Below, in pieces: positions 1,336 to 26,787 of a DNA stretch of 64,000 bases (positions are counted from its first letter, which is position 1; every line of letters begins with the position of its first letter). Where the stretch lies: positions 11,788,407 to 11,852,406 of the forward strand of contig OW028584.1 of assembly GCA_932294295.1 (NCBI GenBank). Direction: 5' to 3'. The notes under the pieces were generated by a model. The model did not search any database and had not been told where the DNA came from. It worked only from the letters and a program-made list of their open reading frames with translations. A program made the translations under genes and the position numbers. The DNA comes from Alitta virens. Its lineage: Eukaryota > Annelida > Polychaeta > Phyllodocida > Nereididae.

Positions 1336-2158
1336 TATAATGAGATTACTCTGGGGGGAGGTACCGATCTGGAGTGCTGCTCAAGTCAAGATTAGCTAGT
1401 TTTAATGTATGTGGTATTTTCCTCAATAATGTATACTGTCTTCTTTTACTGACAGTTTAGTTTTAGATAATTTAATTCTTAGCTCCTGCTCATTCAAAGC
1501 TTCAGATAATGCTTTATAAATGGCAATTTCTAGTATAAAACACAAAAACAAAACCACTTGCAATTAAGTTTCGGAAATATATTCTGGTTAATACAAATAC
1601 TTATATGATGATTAGACCAATGCTGGTTTCCTTTGGTCATTAATATTATACATGAGTTCTGGGTACAAATTGTGTCATGAACAGGATATGGTGGCTCTGT
1701 TTATATTGACAGACTCCAGGACATATACTCTGTATTTGACCCTTAGATTATACTCAACTGGTTCCCACACTGGGAATATATATATATATATATATATATC
1801 AAACAAAATAAACATTCAACACATCAGTTAGTCATAAACCTACCTAACTACACACTTTAGTTACTAATTAACTAATAATCACTTTCTACTATTTTTAGGC
1901 ATTCACTGCTTGGCATATGGTACACTTAAGACAGTTCGCACTCGTTCCCACTGATAATGAACTTTCCTTCACAAAAACATTATTGATATCATTCACATAA
2001 AATATACTGTTCTACAGTGTCAGTCGACACTTTCTCTACTACCTATACTAGTTCACTAATATCTACTCACTTGCATTCGACCTAACACACACTAAAATAA
2101 ACCATAAGTACTTTTCAATAAGCTAGTGGACTAAAAGTAATTAACAATGTTGCAAGCA

Positions 2159-2590
2159 TCTCACACAGAGTATGCTGCCAGGTGCCTCACACAGGACACG
2201 TAACCAAAAAACTCACACAGAGAATATTGCGCGCGTTTCACACAGAATACGCCGCCAGGTGTCTCACACAGGACACGTAACCAAAAATCTCACACAGAGA
2301 ATATTGCGCGCGTTTCACACAGAATACGCCGCCAGGTGTCTCACACAGGACACGTAACCAAAAAATCTCACACAGAGAATATTGCGCGCGTTTCACACAG
2401 AATACGCCGCCAGGTGTCTCACACAGGACACGTAACCAAAAAATCTCACACAGAGAATATTGCGCGCGTTTCACACAGAATACGCCGCCAGGTGTCTCAC
2501 ACAGGACACGTAACCAAAAATCTCACACAGAGAATATTGCGCGCGTTTCACACAGAATACGCCGCCAGGTGACCCGCACAGGACACGTAA
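2159..2590. repeat. 77-78-bp tandem array in the left LTR
   Basis: The GCGCGC landmark recurs at 2229, 2306, 2384, 2462 and 2539, giving five units of 77-78 bp. Each unit contains CTCACACAGAGAATATT, then GCGCGCGTTTCACACAG, then CGCCGCCAGGTGTCTCACAC and ACACGTAACCAAAAA. A diverged half-unit precedes the array at about 2159-2215. The same array is in the right LTR at 21377-21808. Confidence 0.9.
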
Positions 2591-3606
2591 CTAGGGTTTT
2601 TCACATGAATTAAATACAATTGTTTTAGCAAAGAATCTCCTACAGAGTATCCTTTCACTGAATTTCTACTTTATAGCTTACAGGTGTTTTGGATAAATAT
2701 GGGCTGTCCCACTGGTTCTTAAGTGATGATTTTATCAATTACAGAGATAAAGTTCACTTACTTTGTACAATGCCGATTTTGCTGACCACAGTTAGGCTAG
2801 GTCAAGAAGGCTCCTGCTGATTTGCTAACTGCTTGGTTTGAATTTACCTCAGTTGCTAGACGTCCACCTGATCAATGTTTTGAGAATACTGCACTGACCC
2901 TTGGGTATGGTGGCTGGTGGCCTAAGTAACATGGTTTTCAGCCTTGTCCCTATTGGAGCTGGCTCTTGGCCAATCAGGGGCCTACAGTTGGCTGGTTTCT
3001 GGGTGTCATCCTGTTCTGATTACTGCCATCTGTGGCATATAGATTTGGATTCATATTTTATGACTTGTACTCAGTGGTGAACATAAATTGGGTTTTATTG
3101 CCCAAGCTGAATCTATAATGAACTGATTGGTATGTGTCCCTTTCAGCTTGGCCTTCATTAATTGACTTCCTACTTTAAATGTACCAGTGACTTCTGTTTG
3201 GTATCATGCTGTTCCCTTTTGGTTCTCATTATGCTATTATCTCCCCTGGGGCTATTCCTGACTTTGATTCATACTGTGTTGGTTCCATTTTCTCATTATT
3301 CCTTATCTCTGGTTTTTAGATAGAGTGTAGGCTAGCTCTGTGTTGTTAATAATGATAATCTAGTTCTGGGTGTCTTTTGTGTCACCTGTGAGTCATCCCC
3401 TGTGTGTCTGTTGGAGTTTTGCACCTGTGTTACATACAGGTGTTCTCCTTCCTATAATTATTCTAACAATTCCTTTTATCTCCTTTAATCTGTTAATGTT
3501 ACATTTGTTTGTCTTCTTCGTCATGGCATTTGTGGTTTACTTCAATTACTTCATTCCTTTGTACAATGTTTTTCTAATTCTCTAATTTGTGTGTGACACA
3601 ATTACC

Positions 3607-4015
3607 TGAACATAAATATAAGTACAATTTGCTGGGTGATCAATACATTATGGTTTGTTCTTGGTGTTGACAGTGCTTCCCTCTGTGGTTCCTTTGGTCT
3701 TTGTGTTTGGTGGTGCTTCCAGCAGGTGGCGTTGTGGCTTCTTGTCTGGTGCTGCCCTCTTGTGAGATGTCGTAGGTTGTTGCTGTTGGTTCTGCTAAGT
3801 TTAATTATTCTAAACATAAATATAAGTACAATTTGCTAGGTGATCAATACATTATGGTTTGTTCTTGGTGTTGACAGTGCTTCCCTCTGTGATTCCTTTG
3901 GTCTTTGTGTTTGGTGGTACTTCCAGCAGGTGGCGTTGTGGCTTCTTGTCTGGTTCTCCCCTCTTGTGAGATGTTCCAGGTTGTTGCTGTGGGTTCTGCT
4001 AAGTTTAATTATTCT
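3607..4015. repeat. 204-bp tandem duplication in the left LTR
   Basis: The segment starting AACATAAATATAAGTACAAT is repeated with a period of 204 bp (for example TGATCAATACATTATGG at 3637 and 3841), with a few substitutions between units. Each unit holds CCAGCAGGTGGCG (3719-3731 and 3923-3935), which fits the published CTCF core consensus. The same pair is in the right LTR at +19218. Confidence 0.88.
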
Positions 4016-4057
4016 ATGGTTTCAAAGTGTTAGTACATATATACATGCTACATGACA

Positions 4058-4072: not shown

Positions 4073-4822
4073 GAAAAAATTTCGTGTTTGCTACCTCTAA
4101 GTGGCAACCCTAAATTTTTGGTCAAATTGTTATGGACATTAACCAATGTGTTTAACTACTGGCTTTTGTCGGGTAAATGTACCTCAATTGTCTTTTGGGG
4201 TTTCTGAGTCTAGCCTGGTGACCGCTTTGGTCCCCTAGGGGCCGACTTGTCTGAATGCCCTTTATTGACGTTGGCACTGATGTAAGTACTAGGTGGTTTC
4301 TTTGCCAATGCCTAGTTCCAATTTCGCTCACCAGGGTCTCTATCGTTCACCCTGGGCTCTCCATCTCTTTGGGAGTTCCCTGGGGTCTGTTAAGGTCATC
4401 ACTTTTATAGCTATTATGTGGTTTCTTCCCCATCCTGGCGCCAAGTTCATCAGAGGTTAATGTCCATTTGAGGTGGTTTTGTATATGGCATTTTCAAATG
4501 CCATTTTAAAGTATTTTATCTTTTTAAATCTATAAATTGGTCCAACCCATTGGGTTTGTCAGGGGGAGCAGGATGTCAAATAGAAATGTTATTTTAGTTT
4601 TTCTGCACCAAACAAAATTATCGTCGGCTTACAAATAGTAAAATTACCTGGTAATATTTCTATACATTCAATTATCATTAAAAAATTCAATGCCCATCAG
4701 TGGAAACGTGTGCTGTCAATAACTGCCTTATGAGTGGCTTACTCCCCTTTTGCTGGTGCACTGTCCAGTGACCCCTCTTAACCTCGTAAGATTACCAAGC
4801 GTCACTTTCCAGTATTCTTGAG
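4073..4822. other. Internal non-coding region between 3' LTR and Ly6-like gene
   Basis: I see no open frame worth calling on either strand. The region should hold the promoter or 5' UTR of the plus-strand Ly6-like gene. An AT-rich CTATAAATTGG near 4527-4537 is the only TATA-like string noted, about 290 bp before the ATG; its use is unproven. Confidence 0.45.
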
Positions 4823-6584
4823 ATGAACATGGCTGCATTTTTCATTTTCGCTGCTGTTTTGGTTTTCTTGCTGCCCACAATTCGTGGTAAGTGCTTATCT
4901 TTATATGTTATTGGTAGTATGTCAACAGAGCGTTTGTGATTTGCTAAATTTTGTTATTTTCGCCAAACCATGTTCTGTTACTTATGTGTGCATTCCACTC
5001 GCATTATTTATAAAAGTTTCCTAATCTTAGTCATTATAGCTAAAGGCTTCAGTCTAGCATTATACTTTATCGTTGCCTGGCATCATTTTTTATATGTTAA
5101 GTATAAAAACTGATCTCTGAGCTATTGGAGACTGAATGGGCCTTTATGTGCTGACTCCTTCGGTTATCTGAAATAAAGTGTATTCATTATTTATTCATTT
5201 CTTTTTCCATCCGCATTAGGTTACCAATGTCATGCTGATGATGTCACAGGCAGTTGTGTTGTTACCGGCGATGGACAATGTTACGTGAGTTGTCTATGTT
5301 TCATTTACTATTTGGGGTTAAGTTGTACTGTATTGGTCTATTTGGAAAGCATGACTCTGGCTCAGGATTTTGTTTGATTAAACATTTTGCTTTTATTCCA
5401 TATTGGGTTAGTTTTTCTACTGGTTAGTTATTGTTTTTCACCAGTCCGGGTTAATGAGTGCTTCCCTTAGTAAGTGGGTGCACATTATCACCATGTTGCG
5501 GACATCTTGGTTGGTCACAATGTCTGGGATTGGGAGGGGTCCGTTCGAGTTTTCATCCATTTCATAGATGATGTGCCTGCACAGCATTAGCAGATATACT
5601 AGTGCGTTACTCGAAATATTTTCATTATCGGGTACTACGGCCAATAAGTAGTCCCTGTATTCTGCCGCATCACTCCAAGGGGTGGAGAGGCCACCTCTCA
5701 CTTCCCCGTCGTATGGGTGACATATTCTGTGAATTTCGTCGCAGAACAGGCTGAGGAAGTGCCAAATGTCAGATCTATCGATTGCTTGGCCCCAGTTACC
5801 AAGATCCGTGTTGTATACCTGAGCCATTTTCGAGTCGGGTTTTATTATGGTTAAAGTCTGTTCTGGGTCTATAGAGGCCTCGAGGGGTTTTCTGAAAAAA
5901 TAAAGCAAATCAATTAACGTGTTCCAATTTAAATTCTCATACAACCAACTCCCCTATTTCATTAAGCTTATATATATTTCTTTTTTTTTTTTGTATTTTA
6001 CTACCTATGTTTTTTTTTTTATTAAATTTTCTTTTACATTCTATCTAAGACTTTCTATCTTTCTTTTCAGTCGGCTACCCTGTACACTACGCAGGGATCA
6101 TTCACCTACAAGGGGTGCGCCGCTAGGTGCCCTTATATAAAAGACGTAAGGGTGACGTGCTGTCACCAGTCCTTTTGTAATCGAGCAACCATCAAGATGC
6201 CAGGAATGATTATCATCGGTGCGATGCTTTGCCTAGCCATTATTGTTGTCGGAGTGGATCAGCCTTTGTTAGCCGCTTTTCTTGGGATTGTAGTCTGGGC
6301 CCTGCCGTATTACAGGTCAGACTTAGTTCTGCATTACTTTGACAAGTTTCATGTCGTACGTGTGCAGCTTCCTCGACAAGGCTTCCAAGACGCCCGCGAT
6401 GTAGTTTGGTCAGTTTCTCTTATTTATTCCCTACTTTCTCTACTTATAAATTGTGCTCTATAATGGTCACTATTCACTCTAATGATCTTTTGTTCCTTTT
6501 TTTTTTTTTATTCATTGCCCCTGCTATGTTATTTAATTAGAGTTTGGTATTTTTTTCAGAAGGTTTGAGGAGGAGAGTGATTAG
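4823..6584 (+). CDS. Ly6/three-finger-domain membrane protein, spliced, antisense inside the retroelement
   Basis: I assemble four exons: 4823-4886, 5220-5284, 6071-6315 and 6560-6584. Each has GT-AG borders and phases join exactly, giving 132 aa. Exon 1 is a signal peptide (MNMAAFFIFAAVLVFLLPTI, then R-G), with a phase-1 intron after it, as usual in Ly6/uPAR genes. Exons 2-3 carry eight cysteines in three-finger spacing, ending in the family hallmark CCHQSFCN. A hydrophobic C-terminal segment follows (MIIIGAMLCLAIIVVG and a second stretch), then a short charged tail ending E-E-E-S-D. If the 6316 donor is skipped, exon 3 runs on to a stop at 6461-6463 and gives 173 aa. Such domains usually act as secreted or membrane-tethered ligand or receptor modules. 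The gene opposes gag-pol-env, and AATAAA at 7278-7283 can end it. Protein family is fairly sure; role is unknown. Confidence 0.8.
5438..5944 (-). CDS. Orphan 168-aa ORF, retroelement sense strand, within intron 2 of the Ly6-like gene
   Basis: An uninterrupted 168-codon minus-strand frame lies downstream of Env in element orientation. No family is recognised. It is acidic, with several hydrophobic helical stretches (for example NALVYLLMLCRHIIYEM) and two W-containing motifs, and has no signal peptide. Within its N-terminal part the DNA reads as a strong splice acceptor, a T-run then CAG ending at 5892, so the real exon may begin at 5891 and the product may come from a spliced subgenomic RNA. 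That would remove about 18 residues and need an upstream start. Its place, after env and before the 3' LTR, is where complex retroviruses keep accessory genes. That comparison is positional only. Confidence 0.5.
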   Translation of the reverse strand: MYENLNWNTLIDLLYFFRKPLEASIDPEQTLTIIKPDSKMAQVYNTDLGNWGQAIDRSDIWHFLSLFCDEIHRICHPYDGEVRGGLSTPWSDAAEYRDYLLAVVPDNENISSNALVYLLMLCRHIIYEMDENSNGPLPIPDIVTNQDVRNMVIMCTHLLREALINPDW

Positions 6585-7358
6585 TGGAAAGTTTCCATTT
6601 CCACCCTCATCTGCATAATTTATACGACCCGGCTCCGCCCACCAATCTCGACTCGTGCGCCCCCTCATGACATGATCAAATTATTCACCGATGACGACTC
6701 GCTCTGCCTAATTGACTTGCAACTGATTCTGGATTTATTTGTGTTTGACCTAAAAGAAAGAATTGCGAATGTATAGCGCTGTCAGAATGTCAAGAACTGC
6801 ATAACCAAGATTTGTTACATCATTCATCTCCCGCCTAGGCATCCTGCTCAAGTCATCAATACATTTGTCATTTTCATGTCATTTTTTTTTTTGTAAATTT
6901 ATTTATATTTATATTTCTTTCTAAGTTAGCTATTCTGGATTGTTGTCAAATGTAGACCTCTATTTTGTAGTTGGATCTTAGAGATTTATCGGAGCTATTT
7001 GTTATATCATCACACCTGCTATGATGCAGTGTCTTGCACCCCAGGGGCTCGCTCCCGTCCTATTGTATTATCGGGGTCTTTTGTCTACATCATTGCATAA
7101 TTGCGGTCGTGTCTATTTTATCATTTGTCAATTTACTTTGTGTGTCTTTCTAATATGGTCGCCATGTGTGACCCGCTCAGGACCCTACTTACTCAGGCAT
7201 TTTTTTTTTTTTTTTTTTATACTTACAAATGTTGTCACATGTGCATAATGATACTCACGTTTTCTATATTTCACTCTAATAAAAGCTTGTTGGCCTGATT
7301 TTACGGCCCATTTCCAAAAATTTCATGTTTGTGTATTTTTATCATTACTTATCATTTC
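6585..7358. other. Convergent 3' region of Ly6-like and Env genes
   Basis: No supported ORF. This should be the 3' UTR of the plus-strand Ly6-like transcript; it includes long T-runs (near 6498-6509 and 7200-7218) and ends with a polyadenylation signal. The Env stop codon is just beyond on the other strand, so the two units are tail to tail. Confidence 0.5.
7278..7283 (+). terminator. Polyadenylation signal AATAAA for the antisense Ly6-like gene
   Basis: AATAAA lies about 690 bp after the Ly6-like stop and about 75 bp before the Env stop, which is read from the other strand. A signal here would keep the antisense transcript from running through env. The hexamer is seen; its use is inferred. 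Confidence 0.5.
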
Positions 7359-9902
7359 TTAAATTTCAAAGTCCTTCATGCTTTGTACCTCACCCATGTT
7401 GGCTCTGCTTGGCAGTGGGTAACATATCCCATAGTCATCCAATAGCATCGTCGTCACCCTGTGCTGCTGTTTAGTAATTCTTCTCAGCTTGGTGACGTCG
7501 CGCCACTTAATAGACACCGTTTCAGGGAGAGGCAGTCTTATACTTCCACATTGTAAGGAAGCAAATCCATTTGGTGTGAACGAGAAAGTCAATACTCCTG
7601 ATAAAATGGTGCCTCTTATATTAATCACTGATGGCATCAACTCTCCGACAAAGTATACCTCGTGGATAAGTGCATTCAGTGTCGCCACACTTAGGGCCAT
7701 TCGCTCTCTCCCTGAGTTAATTACCAGCAAGATTGATATCTTAGGGTGCCCAATTTTGTTTATTTGGGTGACTAATGGGATTCTTGGGCTTGTTAATGTG
7801 TTCCAAAATCTTTTAACAATTTGGTACGTCACCATCGCTGTGGCTGCTATCACAAAGGTCCCTAGGGCCTGCCATAATAGGTCGCTATTATGACTTCTGC
7901 ACACTTGGCTTGGTGATGCATATGAAGGTTCAAATTGGCCGGCTAAGATCCCCGCCGTCACCAGATTTGAAGTCCTGGCATGCTTATGCGCCGTCCATAA
8001 TGACAGTGCACAGCCCAATGTACCTATGACTGACAAAGTGAAAGACAGTGCGAGAGGCCATGATTTTGTTACAAATAGTTTATCTATGTTATCAAATGAA
8101 TGGTCGTCCATGGGGTTTAATGCTAAAGTGGCTAATATTTCCTTCGTCTCGAGTTCAAATTGCTCCAGGGGTGAGTCATTAATTGTTGACTCATCTATGT
8201 CAAATGATGTGATTTTGTTAGACAGCGCGTTTGTGACCATGCTGTCCAACTCGTTACTTGACCACGTCAGTGGCGAGTCGTCACTGCCATTCAACATATT
8301 TTTGATATTACGCTTAATTAATTTAGACAGTGGGTTATCTATTGGGCTGATTATTACATCCCTCGATGTTTTGTTGCAGAATGGGCCTTTCACATGGAAG
8401 TCATGGTCAACTAAGATACAGTTACATAATGAAGCCTTCTCAATTATTGCTGCTTTGTGTGTGTCCACGTGCATCGGTACATCTTGGCCGTTGCACCATA
8501 ATTGGACACGTTTCGAGAAACCATATACCATTATTTTATCTTCGGTTTCTATTATTTCAGGCAAATTAAATTTCGTTTGGTACACCCTAAACTCACAATC
8601 TAGGTGAGACGCCATATTAATACTATGCGTCATGATTTGTTCAAAGCACGTCTTGTTCTTCCTTTCTAATACGGCCATGGAAGACGGACACACTGTCACG
8701 CTGGGGTTTGAGTGGATCACGTGACATTGGTCTAGCTGGACTGGATTCACTGGCATTATGTTCTTTTCTGATAAGCCTAGGTGCGTGACCAACGGGCTCC
8801 ATTTAGTGGACAGACTACTGTTATGTGTCATTGGGATTGGAACCGTCTTGACTTTCAATAATGTCATCGGTTTCCCATTAGTTTTTATAACTTCTACGGG
8901 TATCTGGATGACTAAGCCGTCGTGACTCATGGCCATGGCTGACCTGCTAAAGGTATATAAATCCTCGGCGTGTTTAAAGATGAAGTCATAGCCTTCATGC
9001 CATTCCTTAACATCTGCTCGCGCCTGATCAAAGGCCCCCGCCAGCGAAATGTAGGGCAGGATTCGGTGTCTTAGCACACCATGACGCCCGTCTCTCACTC
9101 CTTCCAGAGTCTCCCGTAACATGTTAGCTACCGTCGGCATATCATGTAATGTGGCAATTCCCAATTCCGTTTGTACCTGGTTGAGTTTTGATAGCACTGG
9201 GATGGTGTCCGTTTTCTCATTGGTTGAGCTCGCGAACAATTCCAGCACACTGTTTAATCTATCTAGGTTCTTCTGTGTCATTGATAAGTCACTGCGCAAT
9301 TGTTTCACCATCTCGGCCGAGTACTGTTTTTGCTTCAGGTCCAGGGTCACATAATGTGCAAATTGGCCTTTAATCGATTCAACATTATCTTGCAGTTGCC
9401 TTTGTTTGTCACTTAATATTTTTAACCCTTTCTTGATATCTTTATCTCTTTTATAGCTCATAAACTGGTTAATTCCCTGACCTATGAGCCAACTGGCTCC
9501 TGAGGCTATCATCGTCCAGGGAAACCTTTTGGTCCTCCGTGAGGTGCTTGTGACTCTGACATGCTGCACTATGAGCTCATTTTTCAGTCCTCTGATCTCT
9601 TCACGCCACATATCGTACCTGTCAACCATGGATGCTAAGGAAGGTAATTGTTGACGGCAGACTTGTCTCATAAACTCACTTGAGGTTTCATGGCAAGTCC
9701 TATTTAAGGCAGGTGGAATTGTCACCACGGGCCAATCATAATCATCAAATCTAATAAGGAAATTTAGTGTCAAAACCTGTGGGCTTAAATGGATGCTGCC
9801 CTGTTCTTCAAAGATCGCCCCATATTCAGGTATTAACACGTCTTTGGCTTTTATTAGTTGTGTCACGGCAAGTACTAATACTACGGCAAGGCACATACTC
9901 AC
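7359..9902 (-). CDS. env: Env-like fusion glycoprotein with a C-terminal extension
   Basis: The 847-codon frame opens after the LRR stop; the first ATG is at 9896, giving 845 aa. Numbered from the frame start: signal peptide about 3-19; furin-type site RRTKR at 122-126; a hydrophobic Gly/Ala-rich stretch next to it (127-148), as expected of a fusion peptide; a helical, heptad-like region (about 150-235); many N-glycosylation sequons and cysteines; a membrane span at about 616-637. This layout resembles class I and baculovirus-F-like Env proteins of errantivirus-type elements. Unusually, a second hydrophobic span (about 676-697) and some 150 further residues follow. The product is probably a precursor cut into surface and transmembrane parts. 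Its frame is the same as that of the LRR protein upstream, with only a TAG between. Confidence 0.82.
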   Translation of the reverse strand: MSMCLAVVLVLAVTQLIKAKDVLIPEYGAIFEEQGSIHLSPQVLTLNFLIRFDDYDWPVVTIPPALNRTCHETSSEFMRQVCRQQLPSLASMVDRYDMWREEIRGLKNELIVQHVRVTSTSRRTKRFPWTMIASGASWLIGQGINQFMSYKRDKDIKKGLKILSDKQRQLQDNVESIKGQFAHYVTLDLKQKQYSAEMVKQLRSDLSMTQKNLDRLNSVLELFASSTNEKTDTIPVLSKLNQVQTELGIATLHDMPTVANMLRETLEGVRDGRHGVLRHRILPYISLAGAFDQARADVKEWHEGYDFIFKHAEDLYTFSRSAMAMSHDGLVIQIPVEVIKTNGKPMTLLKVKTVPIPMTHNSSLSTKWSPLVTHLGLSEKNIMPVNPVQLDQCHVIHSNPSVTVCPSSMAVLERKNKTCFEQIMTHSINMASHLDCEFRVYQTKFNLPEIIETEDKIMVYGFSKRVQLWCNGQDVPMHVDTHKAAIIEKASLCNCILVDHDFHVKGPFCNKTSRDVIISPIDNPLSKLIKRNIKNMLNGSDDSPLTWSSNELDSMVTNALSNKITSFDIDESTINDSPLEQFELETKEILATLALNPMDDHSFDNIDKLFVTKSWPLALSFTLSVIGTLGCALSLWTAHKHARTSNLVTAGILAGQFEPSYASPSQVCRSHNSDLLWQALGTFVIAATAMVTYQIVKRFWNTLTSPRIPLVTQINKIGHPKISILLVINSGRERMALSVATLNALIHEVYFVGELMPSVINIRGTILSGVLTFSFTPNGFASLQCGSIRLPLPETVSIKWRDVTKLRRITKQQHRVTTMLLDDYGICYPLPSRANMGEVQSMKDFEI

Positions 9903-9938
9903 ACGCTTATCGGCCTCCGCCCAGCACTGTTTCCAAAG

Positions 9939-11669
9939 CTAGAAATCAAAAAGGTCCCACACACTTTCTTTCTTTTCTTGACCTGTAGTAATTAAAGGTT
10001 TTTCTTTAATAGATGTATAATCATAATTAGCGGTGTTTGTTACTGTGGTTGTTTGGTGATTGTTTTGGGCCGTTGTCTCACCCTTACATTCCTCGCACCC
10101 TGTTAACATGACTTTCAATTGCTGTTTGTTTAGCTCGAGAATCATTGCTTTGTCATATTGCAGAGGGTTATTTCTGAGATCAATCGATGAGTTTCTCCCC
10201 AGGCCTGACTGCACTAGCCCTTCCCACGACCTTATTTTATTATACCTTAGGTCAGCCTTCAGTAGTATGTTATTCATAACTTTTGTGAAGGCCATATTCA
10301 GCAAGCTGTTGTGACGTCCATCTAGAGTGAGTTGAGATGGCAATGAGTTCAATTCTATGTGCATTAAATAGTTGTGTTGTACATGTAAAGTGATTTTCTT
10401 ACCCACTGGTAAAGAAAGTGACATAAAGCTTAGTTTGTTATTAGAAAGATTTAACACTGTCAGGTTCATACTTCTAGCCAAATCCATATTCACATTGTAC
10501 AGATAATTGTTACTTAAATCTATACTCTCAATTACCCTTAGGTCATAGTCTTTTATGTCGTCCACGTAAACCAATTTACCACCCGTAATCGCTAGTTCAT
10601 GCAGGTGCATATTGCTTACATGGTTCAATATTGTGAGGCGCTCATAACAAGAGTTCTCAATGATTAGTTCTCTAATTCCTACTTTAATGCTGAGTGATCT
10701 ACCCAGTTGTGGTATTATTGCGTAACCTTGAGTATGAAACCTTCTAATTCTCATTAGCCCCCCAACATCCATGATTTCGCTTTCGCAATTTTCATCAAAC
10801 AAGCTTTTATTGTCTGTGTTGCTTCGCGTTACTTGTATGTTTTTTATCAGTAAACCTGTCCCTAATAACTTAAAGGGAATGGGCCCTTTTGATAGGATGC
10901 TGAGCTCGTTAATCACGCATCTAATGTTTTTAATGGGGCAGAATATTCTTGAGATGGAAGTGTGAGGGTCTAATTCGTTCACTTTTAATCTAATAGTCTT
11001 CATGGCAGGGTTATTAATGTATATAGGGCCCTCAATTTGGGTTAGTTGTGGTGCACGTATCAGTAAGTACTCTAGTAGCTTGCACCCCCCCATCATATAT
11101 CTATTAATGTAAACCAATTCCTGAGCGTCGAGGTCAAATGACCTCACATTACATGGGTTGTTAAATAGTGGGTGCCTAATTTCCTTGGTAAATGGTGTTA
11201 TTAGCGTGATCCACAACACTTCATTGAATCTGCCCATGTTACTTATTTCTGTTTGTCTTGTCTTCACAGCCAACTGTTTCAAACATGAAATCACCGCTTT
11301 AGGTATTGTAATCAGGTTATCTATAAATAGTCCTGTTAAGTATTCCAACTTTGTTTCTATGGTGCTCGTCACTCTCAGTTCAGCTATTTCATGCCAATTC
11401 AAAAAGAGAGTGTTCATTCTAGTGTACCTCGAAATTATGTCGCTGATTGACACGCTAGTGTTCGGGTTATTAATGGATAAGTTTAAGTGCGTCACTTTAC
11501 CTTCATACCCCGGTTCCCCTGGCTGTAATGGATAGACCTGCGTTGCCCTCAAGATAGGAGAAATTATCGTCTCCGGTATGCATTGTAGTATGTTGGCCCA
11601 GGTTTGGCTTGGCCAAATAAATGCGAGCGTAATTATTAAAATCCTCATTTTTTTTTTTTTGTCATTCAT
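9939..11669 (-). CDS. Secreted leucine-rich-repeat protein carried by the retroelement
   Basis: This 576-aa frame lies between pol and env. The first ATG (11669) precedes a lysine run encoded by 12 consecutive A; a second ATG at 11648 starts a better signal peptide (MRILIITLAFIWPSQTWA), so translation may start there. Residues about 379-507 hold clear leucine-rich repeats with LxLSxNxL-type cores (IDLSNNYL, LNLSNNKL, ADLRYNKI, IDLRNNPL); weaker repeats probably extend from about residue 60. A C-x2-C pair at about 525-528 may cap the solenoid. No membrane span is seen after it, so the product should be secreted or bound to another protein. Standard Gypsy elements and retroviruses lack such a gene. 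The place before env suggests a partner of the glycoprotein (receptor binding, decoy or adhesion); this is inference. Confidence 0.82.
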   Translation of the reverse strand: MNDKKKKMRILIITLAFIWPSQTWANILQCIPETIISPILRATQVYPLQPGEPGYEGKVTHLNLSINNPNTSVSISDIISRYTRMNTLFLNWHEIAELRVTSTIETKLEYLTGLFIDNLITIPKAVISCLKQLAVKTRQTEISNMGRFNEVLWITLITPFTKEIRHPLFNNPCNVRSFDLDAQELVYINRYMMGGCKLLEYLLIRAPQLTQIEGPIYINNPAMKTIRLKVNELDPHTSISRIFCPIKNIRCVINELSILSKGPIPFKLLGTGLLIKNIQVTRSNTDNKSLFDENCESEIMDVGGLMRIRRFHTQGYAIIPQLGRSLSIKVGIRELIIENSCYERLTILNHVSNMHLHELAITGGKLVYVDDIKDYDLRVIESIDLSNNYLYNVNMDLARSMNLTVLNLSNNKLSFMSLSLPVGKKITLHVQHNYLMHIELNSLPSQLTLDGRHNSLLNMAFTKVMNNILLKADLRYNKIRSWEGLVQSGLGRNSSIDLRNNPLQYDKAMILELNKQQLKVMLTGCEECKGETTAQNNHQTTTVTNTANYDYTSIKEKPLITTGQEKKESVWDLFDF

Positions 11670-11886: not shown

Positions 11887-14800
11887 TTAATCTAGACTAA
11901 TTGGATCTATGGACAGGGTCCCATTAACTGAGTCCCTAATACATTCATCGGGTGACTCAGGCGCTGGGATGGCGCTCGTGCGTGACATGCTCTCTGGCTC
12001 CTTAATGCGCAGCCCTTCAACTAATTCCTGCAATGGTCCCAGTTGGTCCGCTATTTCATCTTGTGTGCTTCGCGGCAGCTGTTCCAGCTTGGCCAGCAGC
12101 TGCCAAATTGTTTCAGCAAAGCTCTCTCTCACTCTTATTTTTGCCACTCTGACCCTTCGTAAGTGAATTGGCTGAGAAATCAGTTCATTTTTCAGAGTGC
12201 TTATTACTATAAACTGGTCAGGGAGCACTTTACTGCAGACAAATGGCCCGATATAATAAAATGATATTTTTCTGCTCAGGAATAGTTTTGATTTGTATTG
12301 AGGGGCCCATATATAACAAAATTGTCCTTCAGAAATATCAATTGTTTTAGCTGACTTATTTCTCATGCGACTGGCACTCATTTGTCGTTGAGTATTCTTA
12401 TGTTGTCTCACTACCTCTTGTAGTTCCCCCATCCTTCTATCTACCATCTTTAAGTAATCATCATATCCGGTGACAGTTGTGGGTGTCGGCTGAATATCAA
12501 CATCTTTTAGATCCGTTCTATAGTTATGCTTTCTACCAAAGAACAGTTCGAAAGGTGTGATCCCTTCGGAGGTTGTCATGTTATTAGTGGCCCAGACCGC
12601 AAAGTAAACACCATTTACCCAATATTGCTCAATGTCTTCAGCCGTGAGAGTGATTAGCCGTTGTTGAATGGCTCCTATGGCCCTCTCAGCAAAAGAAAAG
12701 AAATGACAAAAGTTCGGGACAAATCTTAGGTTCACATCCAACAATCTGCAGGCTGCTTCAAATTGTTTTCCGCTCATGCTACCGTCTTGGTCAGCTATCA
12801 GCGTTTTTGGTGAACCTACTGTGGCCACATATCGCAGTATCACATTCAATATTTCCACACTAGTTCTTTGTTTTATTGGTTCTGCCATTACATAATGGGA
12901 AAAATCATCAGCCAAAACCACTATGTATTTGTAACCATCTGATGCTGTAGGCATGTATTTTAGGTCAATATACACAATGTCCATAGGTCCGCGGCTTTCT
13001 AAGCTTGGGCTGTCAGAAAAGTCGAAACCCACACAGTCTCCAGGGCCTGGTGATTTCTGAATGCAAATGGGGCAATTCCCTACGATATCTTTTATAATCT
13101 GATAAAGTCTGGTGCCAAACACTTGATTTCTTAGCATGGTATACAGTCGTTGCATGCCGATATGGTGACTTTTTGGGTCAAGGTGTGCCCTAGTCACTAC
13201 TTTAAATGTGTCATGCTCATCTAAAACCGGTCTCACCAATAGTCTACTTTCATCCTTTTCTGATATGTGCACCAACACGTCATTTACTAGAGCGAATGAC
13301 TCGCACATAGCCAGTACCTTTTTGCTGCATTTTTGTTCAGATGGGAGTGAGCCATTTTTAAGAAAGTTGTAAATGCCTCCGTAAGTTATTGATAGCTTCT
13401 GGTTCCTCACCATATCACTTTTAGACAGAGGTAGCAGTAATTCATGATCGCATGCTTTAGATATTCTTTCAAAGTACTCATCTATGTTTGATTGACTTGG
13501 GAGGTGCTTTATCTTGATATCACTTCTTACTATATCTGACCATGCAAATTTACCTGGTCTGATTTCTTCCTCCGGGATTTTAGTTACATCATCAAGAGTA
13601 ATGATAAATCTACCAGCGTCATCCATATGCACTAGTGGCTCCCCTTGCGGCCAGTATGGGTTAGTTGCTCCCATCTGCACGCTGTCTCCACCTGGTGCAT
13701 TTTCTGGCACTTGTGGTCCAAGCATTTGTGAGTTACATTCGACATCAGGTGGGCGGTCTACCCCTTGCTCTTTCCTGTCCCACACAGCTTCTTTTTCTGA
13801 TCCTTCGGTTGTCATGCTCTGGTGGGTTTCATCAGTCCCCCCTACTATTTCCTCTTCCTCACTCTCTTTATCTTGGAATCTTATTGGCTTCTGTAGGTTA
13901 GTTCGCTGCCTCAGATTGTATCTGCCAGCGGAGTCCTCTTTATCATTTAGAACAAACAGACTCCCTATCATTGAGTGCCCTTCGTGCCACAAGCTTTCCC
14001 AGATGTCATCTTCCCTGGGCAATGCGATGGTCTTCTCGCTGTCAGACTCCGGTGGAACGGCTTCCCTAGATAAGAAGTCTGCGCTATCCACCAGTGACTT
14101 CCCTGATCGATGTTCGATCAAAAAATTGTATGGAGATAATTTCTCCAGCAATTTTATGGTCAGTCTTGGTGCTGTTTTTGACTGGTGGGTGGTTGGTCTT
14201 ATAATCCCAATAGCCCCACTTGAATCTGTGATAACTTTGAATGACTCACCGCTTAGGTAGTTCCTAAACATGGAAATGGCCACATATATGCCTAATAACT
14301 CTAGTTCTGCTGATGAATTCACCTTGGGGAGGTTCTGCAATCTTTTAGCTTGAAACGAAATTATTCGTTCAGATTCTGAGCCAATGTCTTCCCCGGGGGC
14401 TACTTGGGACAGCACGCAGCCTATTCCCTCGTGCGATGCGTCTACCCTTAGTACATATTGGAAACCACATATTGGCACCCTCAGCACCTCTGGGCTCGCC
14501 AGTAAGTCCTTTATAGTGTCAAACGCTGCCTGTTCTTTTGTGCCCCAGATAAACTTCACTTTGTTACTAGTTAAATCATACAGAGGGCCAGCGATATTCT
14601 GAAAATTAGGTAAGTGTGACGCCAGGAAGGTGGCAAATCCTAAGAATTTACGCACTCCCTTCCTTGACGTTGGTTCTACCAGTTTCCCCGCTGCCTGTTT
14701 CTTTCCATTCGGGACCTCCACTCTCATTCCTCTTTCTTCTATTATGTAATTGAATCCCAGTATTGTCGTGCATTTTGCAGACCACTGGGTTTTTTGAAGG

Positions 14801-16663
14801 TTCAATTTCAGCCCTCTGTCTTTGAGTCTTCCCAGCACCTCGTCTAAGGCCGCTAAATGTTCATCGAACGTTTCTGTGAAAACATACACGTCGTCTGCAT
14901 AGAAAGCTACATTGTCTCCCCACCTTAGATCTTGCAATACCTGAGAGAGTGCCTCACTCCATAATGATAAAGAGGGTTTTGCGCCCATCGGCACCCTGGA
15001 CAATCGATAAGATTGAGAAAGGGAGTAAAAGGACAAACCATATAATTGCTTACTTCTTTCATCTAATTCGATTGAGTAAAAAGCTTGAGATATGTCTAGT
15101 GCTGTAATGAACTTAATGTTCCCTAGGCAGGCTAGCTTGGTATGTAGTTCAGGTCGGGTGAGCAGTGGGTGATGTTTGGAAGCTGACATAGAATTGATTG
15201 TCCTGCCGTCTAGGATTAATCTAACCTTAGTTGAGTTGGGTTTTTCGCGCACAAACACGGGTGAGTAGCATATGGCTTTACCTTGCTCGACTATATTGTG
15301 CATCATGAGCTTCCTGACTTCACCATTCATTGCTTTAATGAGTGACGAGGAAACTGGATATGGGCGCAAAATAAATGGCTTAAAGTCACCTGTCACTTCG
15401 ACGCTGGCTTTGTAGCCCTTCAGCAGCCCCACCTCGTCATAGCACGCAAATACATCGGCTTGTCTCATCACTAGTTCTTTGATTCTATCTCTTTGACCCC
15501 CATTCAGCATAGAGTCAGTAAACTGCAGTGTCTCCCCTATCAATTCCCCTCTGGACTTTTTCAACCTTTCATCATCTGTTTCTAACCATGGGTAGTCTTT
15601 CAAATTACTTTCATGCAGTTTACTATCTTTACCGCATGCTAGATTACCGTCTTGTTCTTCCAATTTTGTTTCCAGCTGTCTGCTATTCCCCATACTCAAT
15701 GTGAATTCGGATCTACAATCTGAGCGAGGCCCTTGCTTAATCATTGGTTTTGTTCTTGTCAGTGCTTTGGTTAGTTGCTCATTTCCACCTGGGATTAGAT
15801 TTATCTTGTCCCCTGGGGCACTGGTCGCATCACTGCACACAAACACCACGCTCTCTGATTCCAGGTAACCGAGTGTCATGCCAACTTCGATCACAATACT
15901 TCTATTCGAGTCATTTTCACATAGGACCAGACCCGCGTCGCTCACAAATGTTATTGTGTTGCTCTTTATAATCTTCCCTAGAGATTTCACCGCACTTATC
16001 ATGAACATATCTGTGCTCAACACCCGTGTGTCGGCGTTCTTGACCTGTGCTAAAATGACACATCGCTCCCCTTTCCCTAATGGACTGGCGCTCATGGCCA
16101 CTATGGGGTATACTGGGCGGTGTATAATGACTTGATTTAGACCTACATTCACCACTGCTCCCAGCTGAGACATCACATCATTACCAATCAATATCAGATT
16201 ACCTGTCATGTGGGTGGCAACGTGAATTGGTATGCTCAGTGCCACGCCCTCTGGCGTCGTAATTTTGACTCTAATGACGTGGTTCGAGTTAAGCTCCCCA
16301 TCATTACCGGCTACAAACGTGAGCGGCTTCGTGGGCTCCTTGGGGAGTCCCCTGAGAAGCTCACTTTCGCTTACAGTATTAATTGAGATTAAGGTTTTAA
16401 TAGCCCCAGTATCAAAAATTACTCTTACTTTTTCCATGCTGTCTCCCATTGAACATATAACTTCATTCATAGCTCCTACTCCTATCTGCAGTCCACTCTC
16501 CCAATCAACCTTATCTTCCTGAATTTCTTTAATTGCTATTCTATCGTTAAATCTGACTGTCTTGATTTCTGCATCTTCATTAATCATAGCGGATGGTTCA
16601 GTACCTTTCTTACGTACAGGGGGTTCAGTTGGTACTCCTGCAAAATCTGGCCCCCTTTCTAAA
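11887..16663 (-). CDS. pol: Pol polyprotein: protease, reverse transcriptase, RNase H, integrase
   Basis: Numbering is from the first methionine of the frame (16587); the frame is open upstream to the gag stop. Protease DTG at 59-61. Reverse transcriptase from about 390, catalytic Asp in LDIS (D498) and YADD at 563-566. RNase H with D716, E761 and D788. A charged linker of about 200 residues (840-1040). Integrase zinc finger H1135, H1141, C1172, C1175; catalytic D1208, D1266 and E1301 with about 35-residue D-E spacing; GPF module near 1447. Domain order and GPF place it in Ty3/Gypsy. All catalytic residues are present and the frame is unbroken, consistent with a functional enzyme. The product copies the RNA genome and integrates the DNA. 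It is probably made as Gag-Pol by -1 frameshifting at the gag stop. Confidence 0.95.
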
Positions 16664-16666
16664 AAT
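16659..16666 (-). promoter_or_regulatory. Candidate -1 ribosomal frameshift site at the gag stop
   Basis: The minus strand reads A-TTTTT-AG, in which gag ends CAT TTT TAG. Slipping one base back on the U-run puts TTT in the P site and continues TTA GAA AGG into the open pol frame. The frame relation is seen. The site is a stop-adjacent U-run rather than a classic X-XXY-YYZ heptamer, so the mechanism is inferred. Confidence 0.5.
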
Positions 16667-19600
16667 GTGGGTTATTATTGTAGTAGTCGTCATGGTAATA
16701 TACTGCTTGGGTTGGGGGTCCCATGTTCCGATTGTTGGCTCCGCCCCTGTTTCTGTTGTGTCCGCTGTCAGGGCGTTCTCTGTTTTGTTCTCCCCTGGGC
16801 CCTCTATAGAAATTCTGAGTTGATGCTGGCCTGGGCCAGGGTGATGCGTTGTAGTCAGGTAACATAGGGTTATTGAAGTATTTATCATGGTAACCATTCG
16901 GGCCATCATCGCCGCTCTCTCCCTTGCTTCGGTATGCTGTTCCTCGCATCACTGAGTCGTTGGGGCAGTCCCTGGCCACGTGTCCCAGTCTTCGACAGGA
17001 GTAGCATCTGAATGTTCTCCATGGGTTATCTCCTTCGCGTCCCGGCATACTCTCAAAGGTTGGGCGTAATGGCCTTGGTTGGTTAAGTGTTGTCTCTTCT
17101 GGCCTCATATGCCTGGGGCCCATGTTATACACTTCGCTTAGCTGCCTGTTCAGCTGATTGGCGAGCGGCTGAGCATCCATATGGTTAATTGCTTTTTTGG
17201 TCCCCCCTTTATTAACCTGAGGAGAATTTCCTGACCCATCTTCTCCCTCACTATCATAGAATTTCAGCATTTCCACCACCCCCTTGAAGTTATCGATTCC
17301 TCTCTCTTTTATTCTTAATCTAATGTTAGCAGGAGTCATTTTCAACAATTTATCTACCAATGCTGATTCATTGTATTCCAGCACCCTGTTTAGTTCCATG
17401 ATTCTTCTCACCACTTCATTCCATGTTTCGTGGTCCTTTCTTTTCAAGTCATAGAATTGCTGGCTGGCAGCGTGGCGCGAGCCCAATCCCCCCGCAAATC
17501 TGTTAAGGAATTCTTCCCTCAGTGTTTTTAAAGCCTCACATCCCAAAATTCCCTCAAACCAATTTCTGGCGCTACCTGCTAGCGTTTTCTTGAAAAATTT
17601 TATGGAGATGGATTCATCTTGGATGTTATGGTGTTCCAAGAAATCTTCAAAAAGTAACCAGTGTCCCTTGGCGCAGTCTTCACTTCCCTCTCCGTCGAAC
17701 GATTTCGGGAAGAACTGGGTGACCTTGGTGTAGTCGGGTGGACCCTGGTGGTTAGTCTTCGCTCCATTAATGGTCATCCCACCTGGTGCCAGTCCATGTA
17801 TATATGCATGCTGCTGCGGTGGTGGACCCCAGGGGTTAGATGAGTTACTGGGATTAAAACCTGAAGGGCCAGCATTGCTTAGTATATTGAGATGTGTCTG
17901 GCTTTCTGGTTCGGATAAATTCATTTCACATGTGTGATTCTCCCCATACTTGTTTCCGACCCCACGCATGGTTTGCTGCCCATTCATACTTGCGTTATAA
18001 TTTGATGTTCCCATCTGTCCATCGGCTCTCAGTTGGCTATAGTCTGGGGTCGAGGTCATGTATTGGTCCGTCATGCTCCGCCCTGGCTTTCCTGGGGGAA
18101 AGGGGGATGTGGTCCTGCAAGTATTCAAAAGTGGGTTGTTTGTATCTATTGTCTGGCCCACCTGCTGTCTAGTCATGTTATCATTATTCATTGCATGGAT
18201 CGCGGTGCCCACAGAGTTGTGCACCTTGGGGTATTGAGGCGTGATCCCTCTCGTCACGGGGGCCATCACGCTTCCTTCTATTTGGCTGGTGTACGTCATC
18301 ATGTCTGCTGGTGCCCTGCTAGTTGTGTCACCCATTAAAGGGTGTGCTAATGGGGTTCTAAGATGCGATTGGGGCTGTATGTTGATATGGGGTATAGCAG
18401 GTACTGGCGTGTAACTTGGTACCGATTGACAGAGCGGGCCAACACTGCTATGACCTTTCAGTTTAGGTCTAGCTCCGGTCCCGCATGAGTCAACACTGGT
18501 AGTAGGCTGGCTGTTATTATTAACTTGGATTAGTTGGGGGTTGGATAAGCCGCTTGGGTGCGCTGCTGCCTGAGCCATATTCGATGTCGTCAGTCCTTGA
18601 TTCACTGGTACATTGTTGAACACATCCCACGAGCTGTTTCCTCCTGCCACGTTTGGTGCATTACTCGCGGTAGGCTGGGGATTCCCGGCCGTTACAGGCA
18701 TGGCATTTGTGTTATTTGGGGGTGGGGCCACTTGATTAATTGTTTTACTGATTGGAGTCGACGCGGCCAGTGGAGCGCCTATTATGGCGGCTTGGAGGTT
18801 CTGCATACTGGAAACAACATCATTAAAGTCATATTTTTTTGCTGCAACCTGTGCGCTATTTGGTTTAGGGGGCCCAAGTGCTTTATTTAGTTGGCCTTGG
18901 GTTGGGTTAGTTGCCTGAGTGGGTACAATGGCTGGGTCCAGTAGGGAGCTCTTTGTTGCGGGTGTTGTGAAAGGCGATCTTTGTTTTGCTGGAGTTGTTT
19001 TTATTGGAGGATTTGGTAATGCCGGTGAGTGGGCCCTCGGTGTTGTCGTGGCATTGCTTGTCCCGACCTGTCCTGTAGCCTTGCCTTGGGCACTTGCCTG
19101 TGATACCTTTACAAGTTGGTTTGCTGACATGGCTGGAGCTGTCGGAGCTATACCTGCTGCTACTGATCCTGCCAGTAACTGCGAAACACTTGTCGTCGCG
19201 ATCGAACTAGTGGTCGCAGTTGCCGGTGGGTTGAGTAGTATTTGTGGTCCTCCGGTTATTGCTCTTGGGGTTCCATTCAATGCGTACCTGTTATCTGGAT
19301 CAAAGCCGAATTGCGTCCTGAAGGCATCTCTCATTAGGTTAGTTAAGTTGCTGACATTCATTGTTTTCTGAGCCAGGACGTGGATTTTTCCTGCTATTCT
19401 CCATAGTCTGTCATTGTCCCCGGATGCTGGTGTTGGGCCTGCAAAATTTTTATGAAAAGTGTCGTGGTCTCCCTGTGTAAACCCCCCAGTTGGCTGTTTG
19501 GTGCCTATTAGCACATCCCACGTCATTCCTAGGGCTTTCCTTACATCATGCCCCTTTATGAACTTCGCCGCAAATGCTGTGGCTAATATTTTTGCTGCAT

Positions 19601-19856: not shown

Positions 19857-20553
19857 GTTTTTAATTACTCTCTCTCTATCAGTTCAGTGTTAATTGCTAC
19901 AATCTGTTTCTTCTGCGCCTCCTGTCGCAGCTCTAAACCGCGGTGCGCTCTATTGTTAATATGTTCTAAATTTATTCTATCTGTCACCTTTGTTTTCCTT
20001 TTATCAATTCACTCCACAAACCTTCAGTTCTATATTTTCCAAGTTTTTACCTAAGCTTTTACTCCAGTCGGATTTTTGGTCAATCCAAAGAAATGCGAGG
20101 CTAAGGAAAAGAAATAAAAAAGGAATTATGTAAGAAGTAACTTGCTTTTTACCTGACCCGTCTGCGATTGTGAACTTTCTAACTATGACACATGGTACGA
20201 TTCTCGAATATTTTACCTTTCATTAGTTCTATGTTTATTTACTTGTTTTTGTGGGCGTATTTCTCATTAGCTCTGTGATGTTGGCCATGGGCCTTTTGCC
20301 CGCCGTTTTATCTATTCCCCCCCCAGCTGTCTTTCTTCTCTCATTTCTCTAGTTCCTTTATGTGTTTCTCATTTGACACTTTGTTGCCCTTCGGCTAATG
20401 TGTGACCTATCTAATTACGCTACTTGTCTGTTTCTTCGCTTGTCACGCTATATTTCCTTAATTTCTGTTCTATCTTTGTGACCAGCACTCCCAGATATCT
20501 GATCTTTTTAACTTCTTGCTTTACGCAGTTAAATGCCCGGATTATGTCCACCA
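19857..20553 (-). other. Retroelement 5' leader (between PBS and gag)
   Basis: About 700 bp of untranslated leader in the sense direction. It has no open frame of note and is where packaging and splice-donor signals would be expected. None could be identified with confidence. Confidence 0.5.
20536..20553 (-). promoter_or_regulatory. Candidate primer binding site
   Basis: Immediately next to the 5' LTR, with no spacer, the minus strand reads TGGTGGACATAATCCGGG. It starts with the required TGG (complement of the tRNA CCA end), and the implied tRNA 3' end would have C at position 61 as expected. I could not match the implied acceptor stem (5' GGACATA) to a tRNA I know. Confidence 0.5.
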
Positions 20554-26594: not shown

Positions 26595-26787
26595 TGTGGT
26601 GGTGGTGGTGGATTAGGGCTTTACGTCCTGTATTTCTGCACCTGTTGGGCTAATTAGGACAGGCAGGGACCATGGCAATGAGATGAAGGATGAAACAGCC
26701 ATCCAACTGAGGCTCGACCGGAAATTGAACCTAGGACCCAGTGGTTGAAAGCACAGTGCGCTACCACTGAGCTCGGCCCACACCCTA
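26595..26787 (-). repeat. SINE-1 copy
   Basis: Full-length copy in reverse orientation: (GTG)n tail, conserved body with TTACGTCCTGTATTTCTGCACC, then the tRNA-like head with a B-box complement (CCGGAAATTGAACC) and A-box complement (CTACCACTGAGCT). Confidence 0.88.

What the first reader, a model, noticed from the sequence alone, without database searches (positions are those of the whole stretch)
4823..7283. Complete intron-containing Ly6-like gene carried antisense inside an LTR retroelement
Between Env and the 3' LTR, on the strand opposite gag-pol-env, four exons with matching phases encode a signal peptide, an eight-cysteine three-finger domain ending CCHQSFCN, and a C-terminal membrane segment. 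An AATAAA follows just before the convergent Env stop. An antisense gene can keep its introns through an RNA genome, because its splice sites are not read on the sense transcript. So this looks like a captured host gene maintained as cargo, with its own transcription unit. Ly6-domain proteins can act as surface ligands, adhesion or complement-type regulators; a role in shielding or altering the infected cell or particle is conceivable but is only a guess.
Basis: partly seen in the sequence, partly recalled or inferred. Interest (0 to 1): 0.93.

Follow-up and report, generated by a model that had tools for sequence, protein, structure and literature searches.

The report
Antisense intron-bearing Ly6 gene in retroelement
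A virus-like jumping element in an animal genome carries, back to front, a conserved gene with predicted introns still in place; the gene is predicted to make a membrane-anchored Ly6-type surface protein, was likely taken long ago from a host gene, and would probably help the element survive or spread.

Summary
The window contains a 21.9-kb Ty3/Gypsy-type element on the minus strand, with two identical 2,722-bp LTRs and a 4-bp target duplication. Between its env-like gene and 3' LTR, on the opposite strand, lies a predicted four-exon gene encoding a signal peptide, an eight-cysteine three-finger (Ly6-type) domain and a membrane tail. It is not a one-off. In this 671-Mb animal genome, 50 of 58 places with a related env (at least 45% identity) have the same antisense exon 0.76-1.5 kb behind env. 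A Pfam profile finds an antisense three-finger exon behind 31 of 43 more distant env copies (26-35%). Where located, splice sites, phases and cysteines persist across subfamilies of 39-100% protein identity. Five selected moderately diverged pairs give dN/dS 0.06-0.16; the other frames carry stops. Some host-like Ly6 genes share the intron phases. Best reading: an ancestor took up an intron-bearing host gene in reverse and the element keeps it because its protein helps. Transcription was not tested and the shielding role is inferred. One capture or two is unresolved. Six truncated derivatives and several broken copies exist. The searches made found no published equivalent.

The parts
1336..4057 (-). 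3' LTR of the element (2,722 bp)
   Evidence: 100% identical to 20554-23275, flanked by CTAG
20554..23275 (-). 5' LTR of the element
   Evidence: as above
4797..4806 (+). conserved block AAGCGTCACT upstream of exon 1; putative core promoter or 5' UTR motif (inferred)
   Evidence: similar block in the nine aligned loci of several subfamilies; the few TATA-type patterns looked for were absent
4823..4886 (+). Ly6 exon 1, signal peptide, ends in phase 1
   Evidence: a Met-Ala start with 19 codons and phase 1 in 11 of 15 loci scanned
4887..5219 (+). intron 1 (GTAAGT...TTAG), predicted
5220..5284 (+). Ly6 exon 2, first half of the three-finger domain (3 Cys), ends in phase 0 after Cys-Tyr
5285..6070 (+). 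intron 2 (GTGAGT...TTTTCAG), predicted
5441..5827 (-). 129-residue sense-strand ORF nested in intron 2 (within open frame 5438-5953); predicted four-helix protein
   Evidence: conserved at 40-54% in other subfamilies; model pLDDT 76
6071..6408 (+). Ly6 exon 3, second half of the three-finger domain (CCHQSFCN) plus hydrophobic membrane segment and tail
6409..6559 (+). intron 3 (GTCAGT...TTTCAG), predicted; the stop TGA would be formed across the junction
   Evidence: GTNAGT in 11 of 11 aligned loci; with the acceptor aligned there, a TG|A stop would form in 8 of 11 (read by eye)
6560..7300 (+). exon 4, mostly 3' UTR (end approximate), with AATAAA at 7278-7283
7359..9938 (-). env-like ORF (859 residues), converging on the Ly6 gene
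   Evidence: no Pfam family reached its cut-off
9939..11669 (-). 576-residue ORF with an N-terminal hydrophobic signal-like segment (by eye) and a leucine-rich-repeat match
   Evidence: LRR_8 E 9e-5, 22.6 bits against a cut-off of 27
11887..16671 (-). pol (reverse transcriptase, RNase H, integrase)
   Evidence: Pfam; RT closest to Ty3 among solved structures
16659..19883 (-). gag-like ORF with zinc knuckle
   Evidence: zf-CCHC 1.6e-5

Best explanation
The element carries, on the strand opposite gag-pol-env, a conserved protein-coding gene with predicted introns for a three-finger (Ly6-type) protein predicted to be membrane-anchored; the gene was likely captured with its introns from a host Ly6 gene and is likely kept because its product would act at the surface of the producing cell or particle. 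Shown: its position and orientation in dozens of copies, conserved exons, splice-site sequences, phases and cysteines, purifying selection on the antisense frame, and matching intron phases in some host-like Ly6 genes of this genome. Inferred: in the sense-strand genomic RNA the introns read CT...AC and are not recognised, so they survive each RNA cycle. After integration, an antisense promoter close to or inside the 3' LTR would drive a transcript that is spliced and ends at the AATAAA just short of the env stop. The protein would be exported and anchored by its C-terminal hydrophobic segment. The role I think most likely is protecting the producing cell or particle from host attack, as CD59-like proteins do. 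An aid to Env or receptor binding is the main alternative. Confidence in the conserved functional protein-coding gene is about 0.95, in capture with introns about 0.8, and in the shielding role about 0.35.
For: Exon-3 homologues at 68 rows or 64 places, in graded subfamilies from 100 to 35% identity. 50 of 58 env places of at least 45% identity have the antisense exon 760-1508 bp 3' of the env match. PF21947 finds an antisense exon within 3 kb behind 45 of 58 close and 31 of 43 distant env places. Splice boundaries of exon 2 intact in 26 of the 26 loci, out of 30 fetched, where it was located (many are near-identical copies). Exon 1 keeps 19 codons plus phase 1 in 11 of 15 clade-A loci scanned and in 4 of 5 clade-B loci scanned. 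dN/dS of exon 3: L018-L020 0.066, L027-L028 0.060, L039-L040 0.064, L042-L043 0.148, L012-L019 0.157; clade B L051-L052 0.08. The five other frames carry stops in all 7 pairs where they were tested. Env and Ly6 identities rank together, Spearman 0.83 over 43 pairs. All 12 of 12 aligned members hit PF21947 at E up to 0.1, and all 49 PDB matches listed up to E 10 are three-finger toxins by name (best E 2.6e-4). Host-like L054 (phase 0 on both sides of intron 2) and L055 and L056 (phases 1 and 0, with a weaker acceptor) match the plan.
Against: No RNA evidence of transcription or splicing. Six of 14 copies of the 5' part lack exon 3. 7 of 68 exon-3 rows have a stop. Twelve of 43 distant env places lack a detected exon. 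Exon 1 was not found in one subfamily (L039-L041) or in L047, and exon 2 not in clade-B L053. In close pairs introns are about as conserved as exons (intron 1 of L039-L040 95%, exon 3 89%), which selection on the protein alone does not explain. dN/dS is higher in other pairs: 0.24-0.49 in several that involve the degraded copy L019 or very distant loci, 0.65 in L028-L033 and 0.99 in L061-L062 with few changes. The window's frame alone scores 24.3 bits against a PF21947 cut-off of 25.3, although the genome search scored the same place 26.2. Host-like L057 gave a different exon-2 phase and L060 no acceptor. The exon-3 tree does not group clades A and B together. No functional data bear on shielding.
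Confidence: 0.8

Rival explanations
1. The two env lineages took up Ly6 genes independently, at the same place and in the same orientation, so antisense Ly6 capture is recurrent rather than a single ancient event.
For: The exon-3 tree places host genes between clades A and B, with support 58-83 on 49 columns. The tails differ: a longer membrane segment plus tail in A, a short GPI-like end in B. Some host genes share the same phases, so shared phases do not prove common descent.
Against: Same position, orientation and similar distance from env in both; the same 19-codon first exon; exon 2 ends in Cys-Tyr at the intron in both. The tree is very short.
Confidence: 0.35
2. The Ly6 protein works together with Env as an attachment or fusion accessory or receptor mimic, not as protection from host attack.
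For: Tight linkage to env and identities that rank with env. Ly6-type proteins serve in gamete recognition (Bouncer/SPACA4, PMC8488580, search listing and start of abstract only).
Against: One subfamily (L021, L022, L024, L025) keeps an open Ly6 exon 3 although no env row lies within 10 kb (ORFs of one copy).
Confidence: 0.3
3. The conserved feature is an antisense regulatory RNA or DNA element, and the protein is incidental.
For: Intron 1 is highly conserved in some pairs. Antisense transcripts regulate some retroviruses (PMC10186651, passages).
Against: Only one frame is open and its nonsynonymous changes are suppressed. The five domain cysteines of exon 3 are kept in 39 of 39, 39 of 39, 40 of 41, 40 of 41 and 39 of 40 loci.
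Confidence: 0.03
4. The segment is a late insertion, an assembly artefact or a neutral passenger.
For: Truncated and broken copies exist.
Against: Same architecture on many contigs and in subfamilies down to 39-48% protein identity, with dN/dS 0.06-0.16 in five selected pairs.
Confidence: 0.02
5. Transfer went the other way: host-like Ly6 genes such as the C13 cluster are domesticated element cargo.
For: The C13 cluster gene (L054) also ends exon 2 in Cys-Tyr and has a membrane tail.
Against: Host-like genes L055 and L056 have more cysteines in exon 2. Ly6 genes are an old animal family (established knowledge; PMC10421932, passages).
Confidence: 0.05

Closest known systems
Antisense additional ORFs between pol and the 3' LTR of plant Ty3/Gypsy elements (Grande, RIRE2, Retand)
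   Same: Conserved protein-coding sequence, antisense to gag-pol, just inside the 3' LTR, present in most copies; own promoter reported for Grande (PMC7264820 and PMC11963269, passages)
   Different: The word intron does not occur in the held text of either paper; origin described as unknown and the review argues against gene transduction. Here there are predicted introns and a clear host gene family, part of which has the same phases.
HTLV-1 HBZ and related antisense retroviral genes
   Same: Spliced antisense gene expressed from the 3' end of a provirus (PMC10186651, passages)
   Different: A nuclear bZIP factor expressed from the 3' LTR; not a multi-intron host-type gene and not a surface protein.
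Herpesvirus saimiri CD59 homologue (ORF15)
   Same: A Ly6-superfamily gene of host type in a virus; blocks complement lysis (PMC7912105, passages)
   Different: DNA virus, ten cysteines, GPI anchor, 48% identical to human CD59. Here the carrier replicates through RNA, and the gene is antisense, has predicted introns and eight domain cysteines.
Host Ly6/uPAR genes and three-finger toxins
   Same: Typical three-exon plan (PMC10421932, passages); the eight-cysteine pattern matches short-chain three-finger proteins (pattern recalled; eight cysteines in PMC10421932)
   Different: Resident in a mobile element; clade A has a longer membrane segment and tail in place of a GPI-like end.
Bs1 and other gene-transducing retrotransposons
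   Same: Host sequence carried by an LTR element (PMC7264820, passages)
   Different: The review says transduced sequences are usually in the sense orientation.

Membership tests
Three-finger / Ly6 superfamily | Cysteine framework ending CC-x4-CN over a two-exon domain | tested here: met
   Exon 2 has 3 Cys, exon 3 has 5; exon-3 domain Cys kept in 39 of 39, 39 of 39, 40 of 41, 40 of 41 and 39 of 40 loci
Three-finger / Ly6 superfamily | Profile match over the curated cut-off | tested here: inconclusive
   Window frame 24.3 bits vs 25.3; same place 26.2 in the genome search; 12 of 12 members match at E up to 0.1; clade-B L061 34.5 and L063 27.8 pass. The domain is split by an intron.
Three-finger / Ly6 superfamily | Three-finger fold | not testable with these tools
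The sequence profile lists only three-finger toxins, 49 of 49 up to E 10.
Three-finger / Ly6 superfamily | Signal peptide exon, then domain split by an intron, then membrane anchor | tested here: met
   Hydrophobic exon 1 and C-terminal hydrophobic segment; phases as in host-like L054 (intron 2 only), L055 and L056, not as in L057
Ty3/Gypsy LTR element | PR-RT-RH-IN order, RT nearest Ty3, paired LTRs, short target duplication | tested here: met
   RT, RNase H, integrase in that order; RT E 5.7e-41 to Ty3 vs 2.9e-20 for the best Gag-Pol entry that is not Ty3; LTRs and 4-bp CTAG duplication. The protease match is weak (E 0.036).
Ty3/Gypsy LTR element with envelope (errantivirus-like) | Fusion glycoprotein of a known type | tested here: inconclusive
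   Conserved 859-residue ORF, with a basic KR site before a hydrophobic stretch in the alignment; structure model unusable, pLDDT 34.7; weak PDB match to a 'fusion protein' E 0.003, next to a similar match to a tektin
Antisense additional ORF class | Antisense coding sequence between the last sense gene and the 3' LTR, in most copies | tested here: met
   50 of 58 close env places; the LTR side was checked in the window only
HBZ-like antisense gene | Transcript starting in the 3' LTR and spliced | not testable with these tools
   No RNA data
CD59-like complement regulator | Blocks lytic pore formation | not testable with these tools
   Only a weak CD59 profile match in one clade-B exon (L061, E 0.0011, below cut-off)

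The most novel reading that the evidence does not exclude
An RNA-replicating element captured a whole host gene backwards, introns included, before its two env lineages split to about 31% identity, and has since inherited spliceosomal introns through countless RNA cycles. It even gained a second gene on the sense strand inside one of those introns. The Ly6 protein is a surface shield or ligand, which makes this element class a carrier of intron-bearing host genes.
Probability: 0.5. Interest if true: 0.93.

Novelty: new variant of a known kind. Interest (0 to 1): 0.86.

Why it matters
Genes captured by retroelements are expected to lose their introns, because the carrier passes through a spliceable RNA. 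Here a conserved gene with predicted introns rides on the strand where the carrier RNA should not splice it. That is a route by which regulated, multi-exon host genes could be moved. The family gives many natural copies at several divergences in one genome, so antisense expression, selection and function can be tested directly. The cargo is a surface protein type that a herpesvirus also carries, which hints at a common use.

Tried and rejected
Host identity: genome size and contig number (671.1 Mb, 23) resemble the published Apostichopus japonicus assembly (PMC10344927, passages). Its chromosomes span 18-46 Mb while contig C1 here is 80.0 Mb, so I do not name the species. A rhodopsin-type GPCR ORF and Ly6 genes indicate an animal.

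A first count that misled: with the window's exon 3 as query, none of 43 distant env places had a match. The Pfam profile then showed antisense exons behind 31 of 43, so the first count lacked sensitivity. One search was an early count on 83 of 131 env rows; with all 131 rows replaces it.

Host phases: my first scan of host-like genes found no exon-3 acceptor for L055 and L056; a looser scan found one in phase 0 with a weak pyrimidine tract. L057 and L060 do not give a consistent model, and no exon 1 was found for L054. I lowered capture-with-introns from 0.85 to 0.8 for that.

Dead ends: PF00021 in the genome gave three weak hits, none over its cut-off; IMG/VR had no relatives of exon 3 or env; the protein database gave one exon-3 relative of ENA origin on a 726-base contig, almost identical by eye to locus L020, and none for env among the 7994 candidates scored; the nested ORF matched no Pfam family convincingly, no PDB sequence and no PDB fold, best E 0.9; the env model was unusable and was not searched. 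The bacterial-type promoter scan is not informative here. Troyka elements were considered and dropped: 3-bp duplications and no env (PMC12440569, abstract and passages). The C13 cluster was first suspected to be cargo; a DNA search shows seven local copies, so I treat it as host, unproven. L058 lies about 2.2 kb from an RT fragment of 34% identity and its status is open.

Literature searches: in an open-licence subset only (one search was for the host's identity). None of the listed papers described, as far as titles, abstract starts and the passages read show, an antisense intron-bearing Ly6 gene in a retroelement; most were seen only as listings.
Full report
What is in the window. A retroelement occupies 1336-23275 on the minus strand. 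Its two LTRs (1336-4057, 20554-23275) are 2,722 bp long and identical, and CTAG flanks both outer ends, so the insertion is recent. Reading along the element: a gag-like ORF with a zinc knuckle, pol with RT, RNase H and integrase, a 576-residue ORF with a leucine-rich-repeat match, an 859-residue env-like ORF, then the antisense gene, then the 3' LTR. The RT is closest to Ty3 among solved structures (5.7e-41, against 2.9e-20 for the best entry that is not Ty3).

The antisense gene. Exons are 4823-4886, 5220-5284, 6071-6408 and from 6560, with intron phases 1, 0 and 2. By count this gives 155 codons and a TGA formed across the last junction. The first exon is hydrophobic. The domain has the eight-cysteine three-finger pattern. 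The part after CCHQSFCN is hydrophobic and ends in a polar tail, unlike a GPI signal. The exon-3 profile lists 49 PDB sequences up to E 10, all three-finger toxins by name, best E 2.6e-4. I do not call it a toxin: it has a predicted anchor.

Other copies. The 5' part of the gene has 14 DNA matches in the genome, eight of them followed by exon 3 within 3 kb and six not. The exon-3 protein gives 68 rows, merged to 64 places; 7 of the 68 rows report a stop. Env gives 131 rows, merged to 123 places. Of 58 env places with at least 45% identity, 50 have an antisense exon 3 at 760-1508 bp. Of the eight others, three have one farther off (4.9-7.7 kb) and five are env fragments without one. With the window's exon as query, none of 43 places at 26-35% and none of 22 at 24% or less had one. 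The PF21947 profile changed this: 45 of 58, 31 of 43 and 1 of 22 within 3 kb. Its control search rang in 2 of 14 control genomes, none over the cut-off. Genome searches score only the best candidates, so the counts are lower bounds.

Conservation of the gene plan. In the first 30 exon-3 loci, exon 2 was located in 26, and all 26 keep AG and GT at its borders; 29 of 30 show AG before exon 3, and L026 could not be read. Many of these are near-identical copies, so independent subfamilies number about six (my reading). A first exon of 19 codons from a Met-Ala start plus one base was found in 11 of 15 loci scanned, not in L039-L041 or L047. Downstream of exon 3, GTNAGT follows in 11 of 11 aligned loci. 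In distant (clade B) elements exon 2 was found in 5 of 6 loci (not L053); the second intron sits at the same point, after Cys-Tyr in phase 0, and is about 120 bp in L051 and L052. A first exon of 19 codons was found in 4 of those 5. Clade B ends in a short GPI-like tail.

Selection. NG86 dN/dS of exon 3 was computed on 16 loci. Five pairs with useful divergence give 0.06 to 0.16: L018-L020 (dS 1.33), L027-L028 (0.33), L039-L040 (0.50), L042-L043 (0.99), L012-L019 (1.41). Very close pairs range from 0.06 to 0.65, several pairs with the degraded copy L019 or between distant loci give 0.24-0.49, and many distant pairs are saturated. In 7 of 9 pairs chosen, those of equal length, all six frames were compared: the five other frames carry stops in every pair, and their ratios exceed 1 in most cases, except the minus frame that shares third positions and a few close pairs. 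Clade B gives 0.08-0.34, with 0.99 for one pair of dS 0.02. Env and Ly6 identities rank together (Spearman 0.83, 43 pairs; 46 of the 68 Ly6 rows were given, env pieces over 550 bp only, window excluded). A gene carried without use would drift to a ratio near 1, so the element, or its lineage, appears to need the protein.

Host source. Three-finger exons outside the element pattern include L055, L056, L057 and L060, and a local cluster of seven on contig C13 (L054). L055 and L056 give exon 2 with phases 1 and 0, an exon-3 acceptor in phase 0 with a weak pyrimidine tract, and an exon 1 ending in phase 1; L054 gives phase 0 on both sides of intron 2; L057 gives another phase and L060 no acceptor. 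This is broadly what capture of an intron-bearing host gene predicts. A tree of exon 3 (49 columns) does not group clades A and B and has low support, so one capture or two remains open.

How it would work. On the genomic RNA the antisense introns appear in reverse complement and lack GT-AG signals, so they would pass through reverse transcription (inference from splicing rules). After integration, the gene would be read from a promoter near the 3' LTR; a conserved block like AAGCGYCACT lies just upstream of the first exon in nine aligned loci of several subfamilies. AATAAA at 7278-7283 would end the transcript before the env stop. The protein would be surface-anchored. Complement-type protection is my first guess because herpesvirus saimiri uses a CD59 homologue in this way (PMC7912105, passages); Env assistance is nearly as likely. 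One subfamily without a detected env keeps an open exon 3, which mildly favours a role not tied to Env.

Nested gene. Intron 2 holds a 129-residue ORF on the sense strand, conserved at 40-54% in other clade-A subfamilies, with dN/dS of about 0.08-0.23 for most moderately diverged pairs and 0.36 for L027-L030. It is modelled as four helices (pLDDT 76) with no known relative. The roughly 120-bp clade-B intron of L051 and L052 has no room for it.

Novelty. Antisense ORFs near the 3' LTR (plant elements), spliced antisense retroviral genes (HBZ) and a viral Ly6-superfamily gene (herpesvirus saimiri) are each known. I found no report of their combination with host-type introns retained in the searches listed, which cover open-licence papers only.

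Noticed in passing
window 5438-5953 (-): Conserved sense-strand ORF nested inside intron 2 of the antisense gene; predicted four-helix protein without known relatives.
   Followed up: partly
window 9939-11669 (-): Large ORF between pol and env with a signal-like start and a leucine-rich-repeat match, possibly a second glycoprotein or captured domain.
   Followed up: no
window 2129-2597 and 3606-4013: The LTR contains six copies of a 77-78-bp repeat and a 204-bp tandem duplication, also present in the other LTR.
   Followed up: no
L021, L022, L024, L025 (L049): Subfamily without a detected env that still keeps an open Ly6 exon 3; in the one copy read further, pol is followed by a short LRR-type ORF. 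The nested ORF has one stop in each of the four.
   Followed up: partly
L039/L040 and L027/L028, intron 1: Intron 1 is as conserved as or more conserved than exon 3 in these close pairs (92-95%), unexplained.
   Followed up: no
G000:C13:2.1-3.3 Mb (L054): Local cluster of seven Ly6-like genes with membrane tails, probably host. The L054 copy holds a widespread repeat of about 670 bp that the other six lack.
   Followed up: partly
window 61979-63076 (-): Single-exon rhodopsin-type receptor ORF (7tm_1, 8.8e-17), a likely host gene.
   Followed up: no
window 26596-38090: Several copies of a roughly 130-bp repeat in both orientations around 26.6, 28.7, 33.2 and 38.0 kb, with a shorter copy at 162-253.
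   Followed up: no
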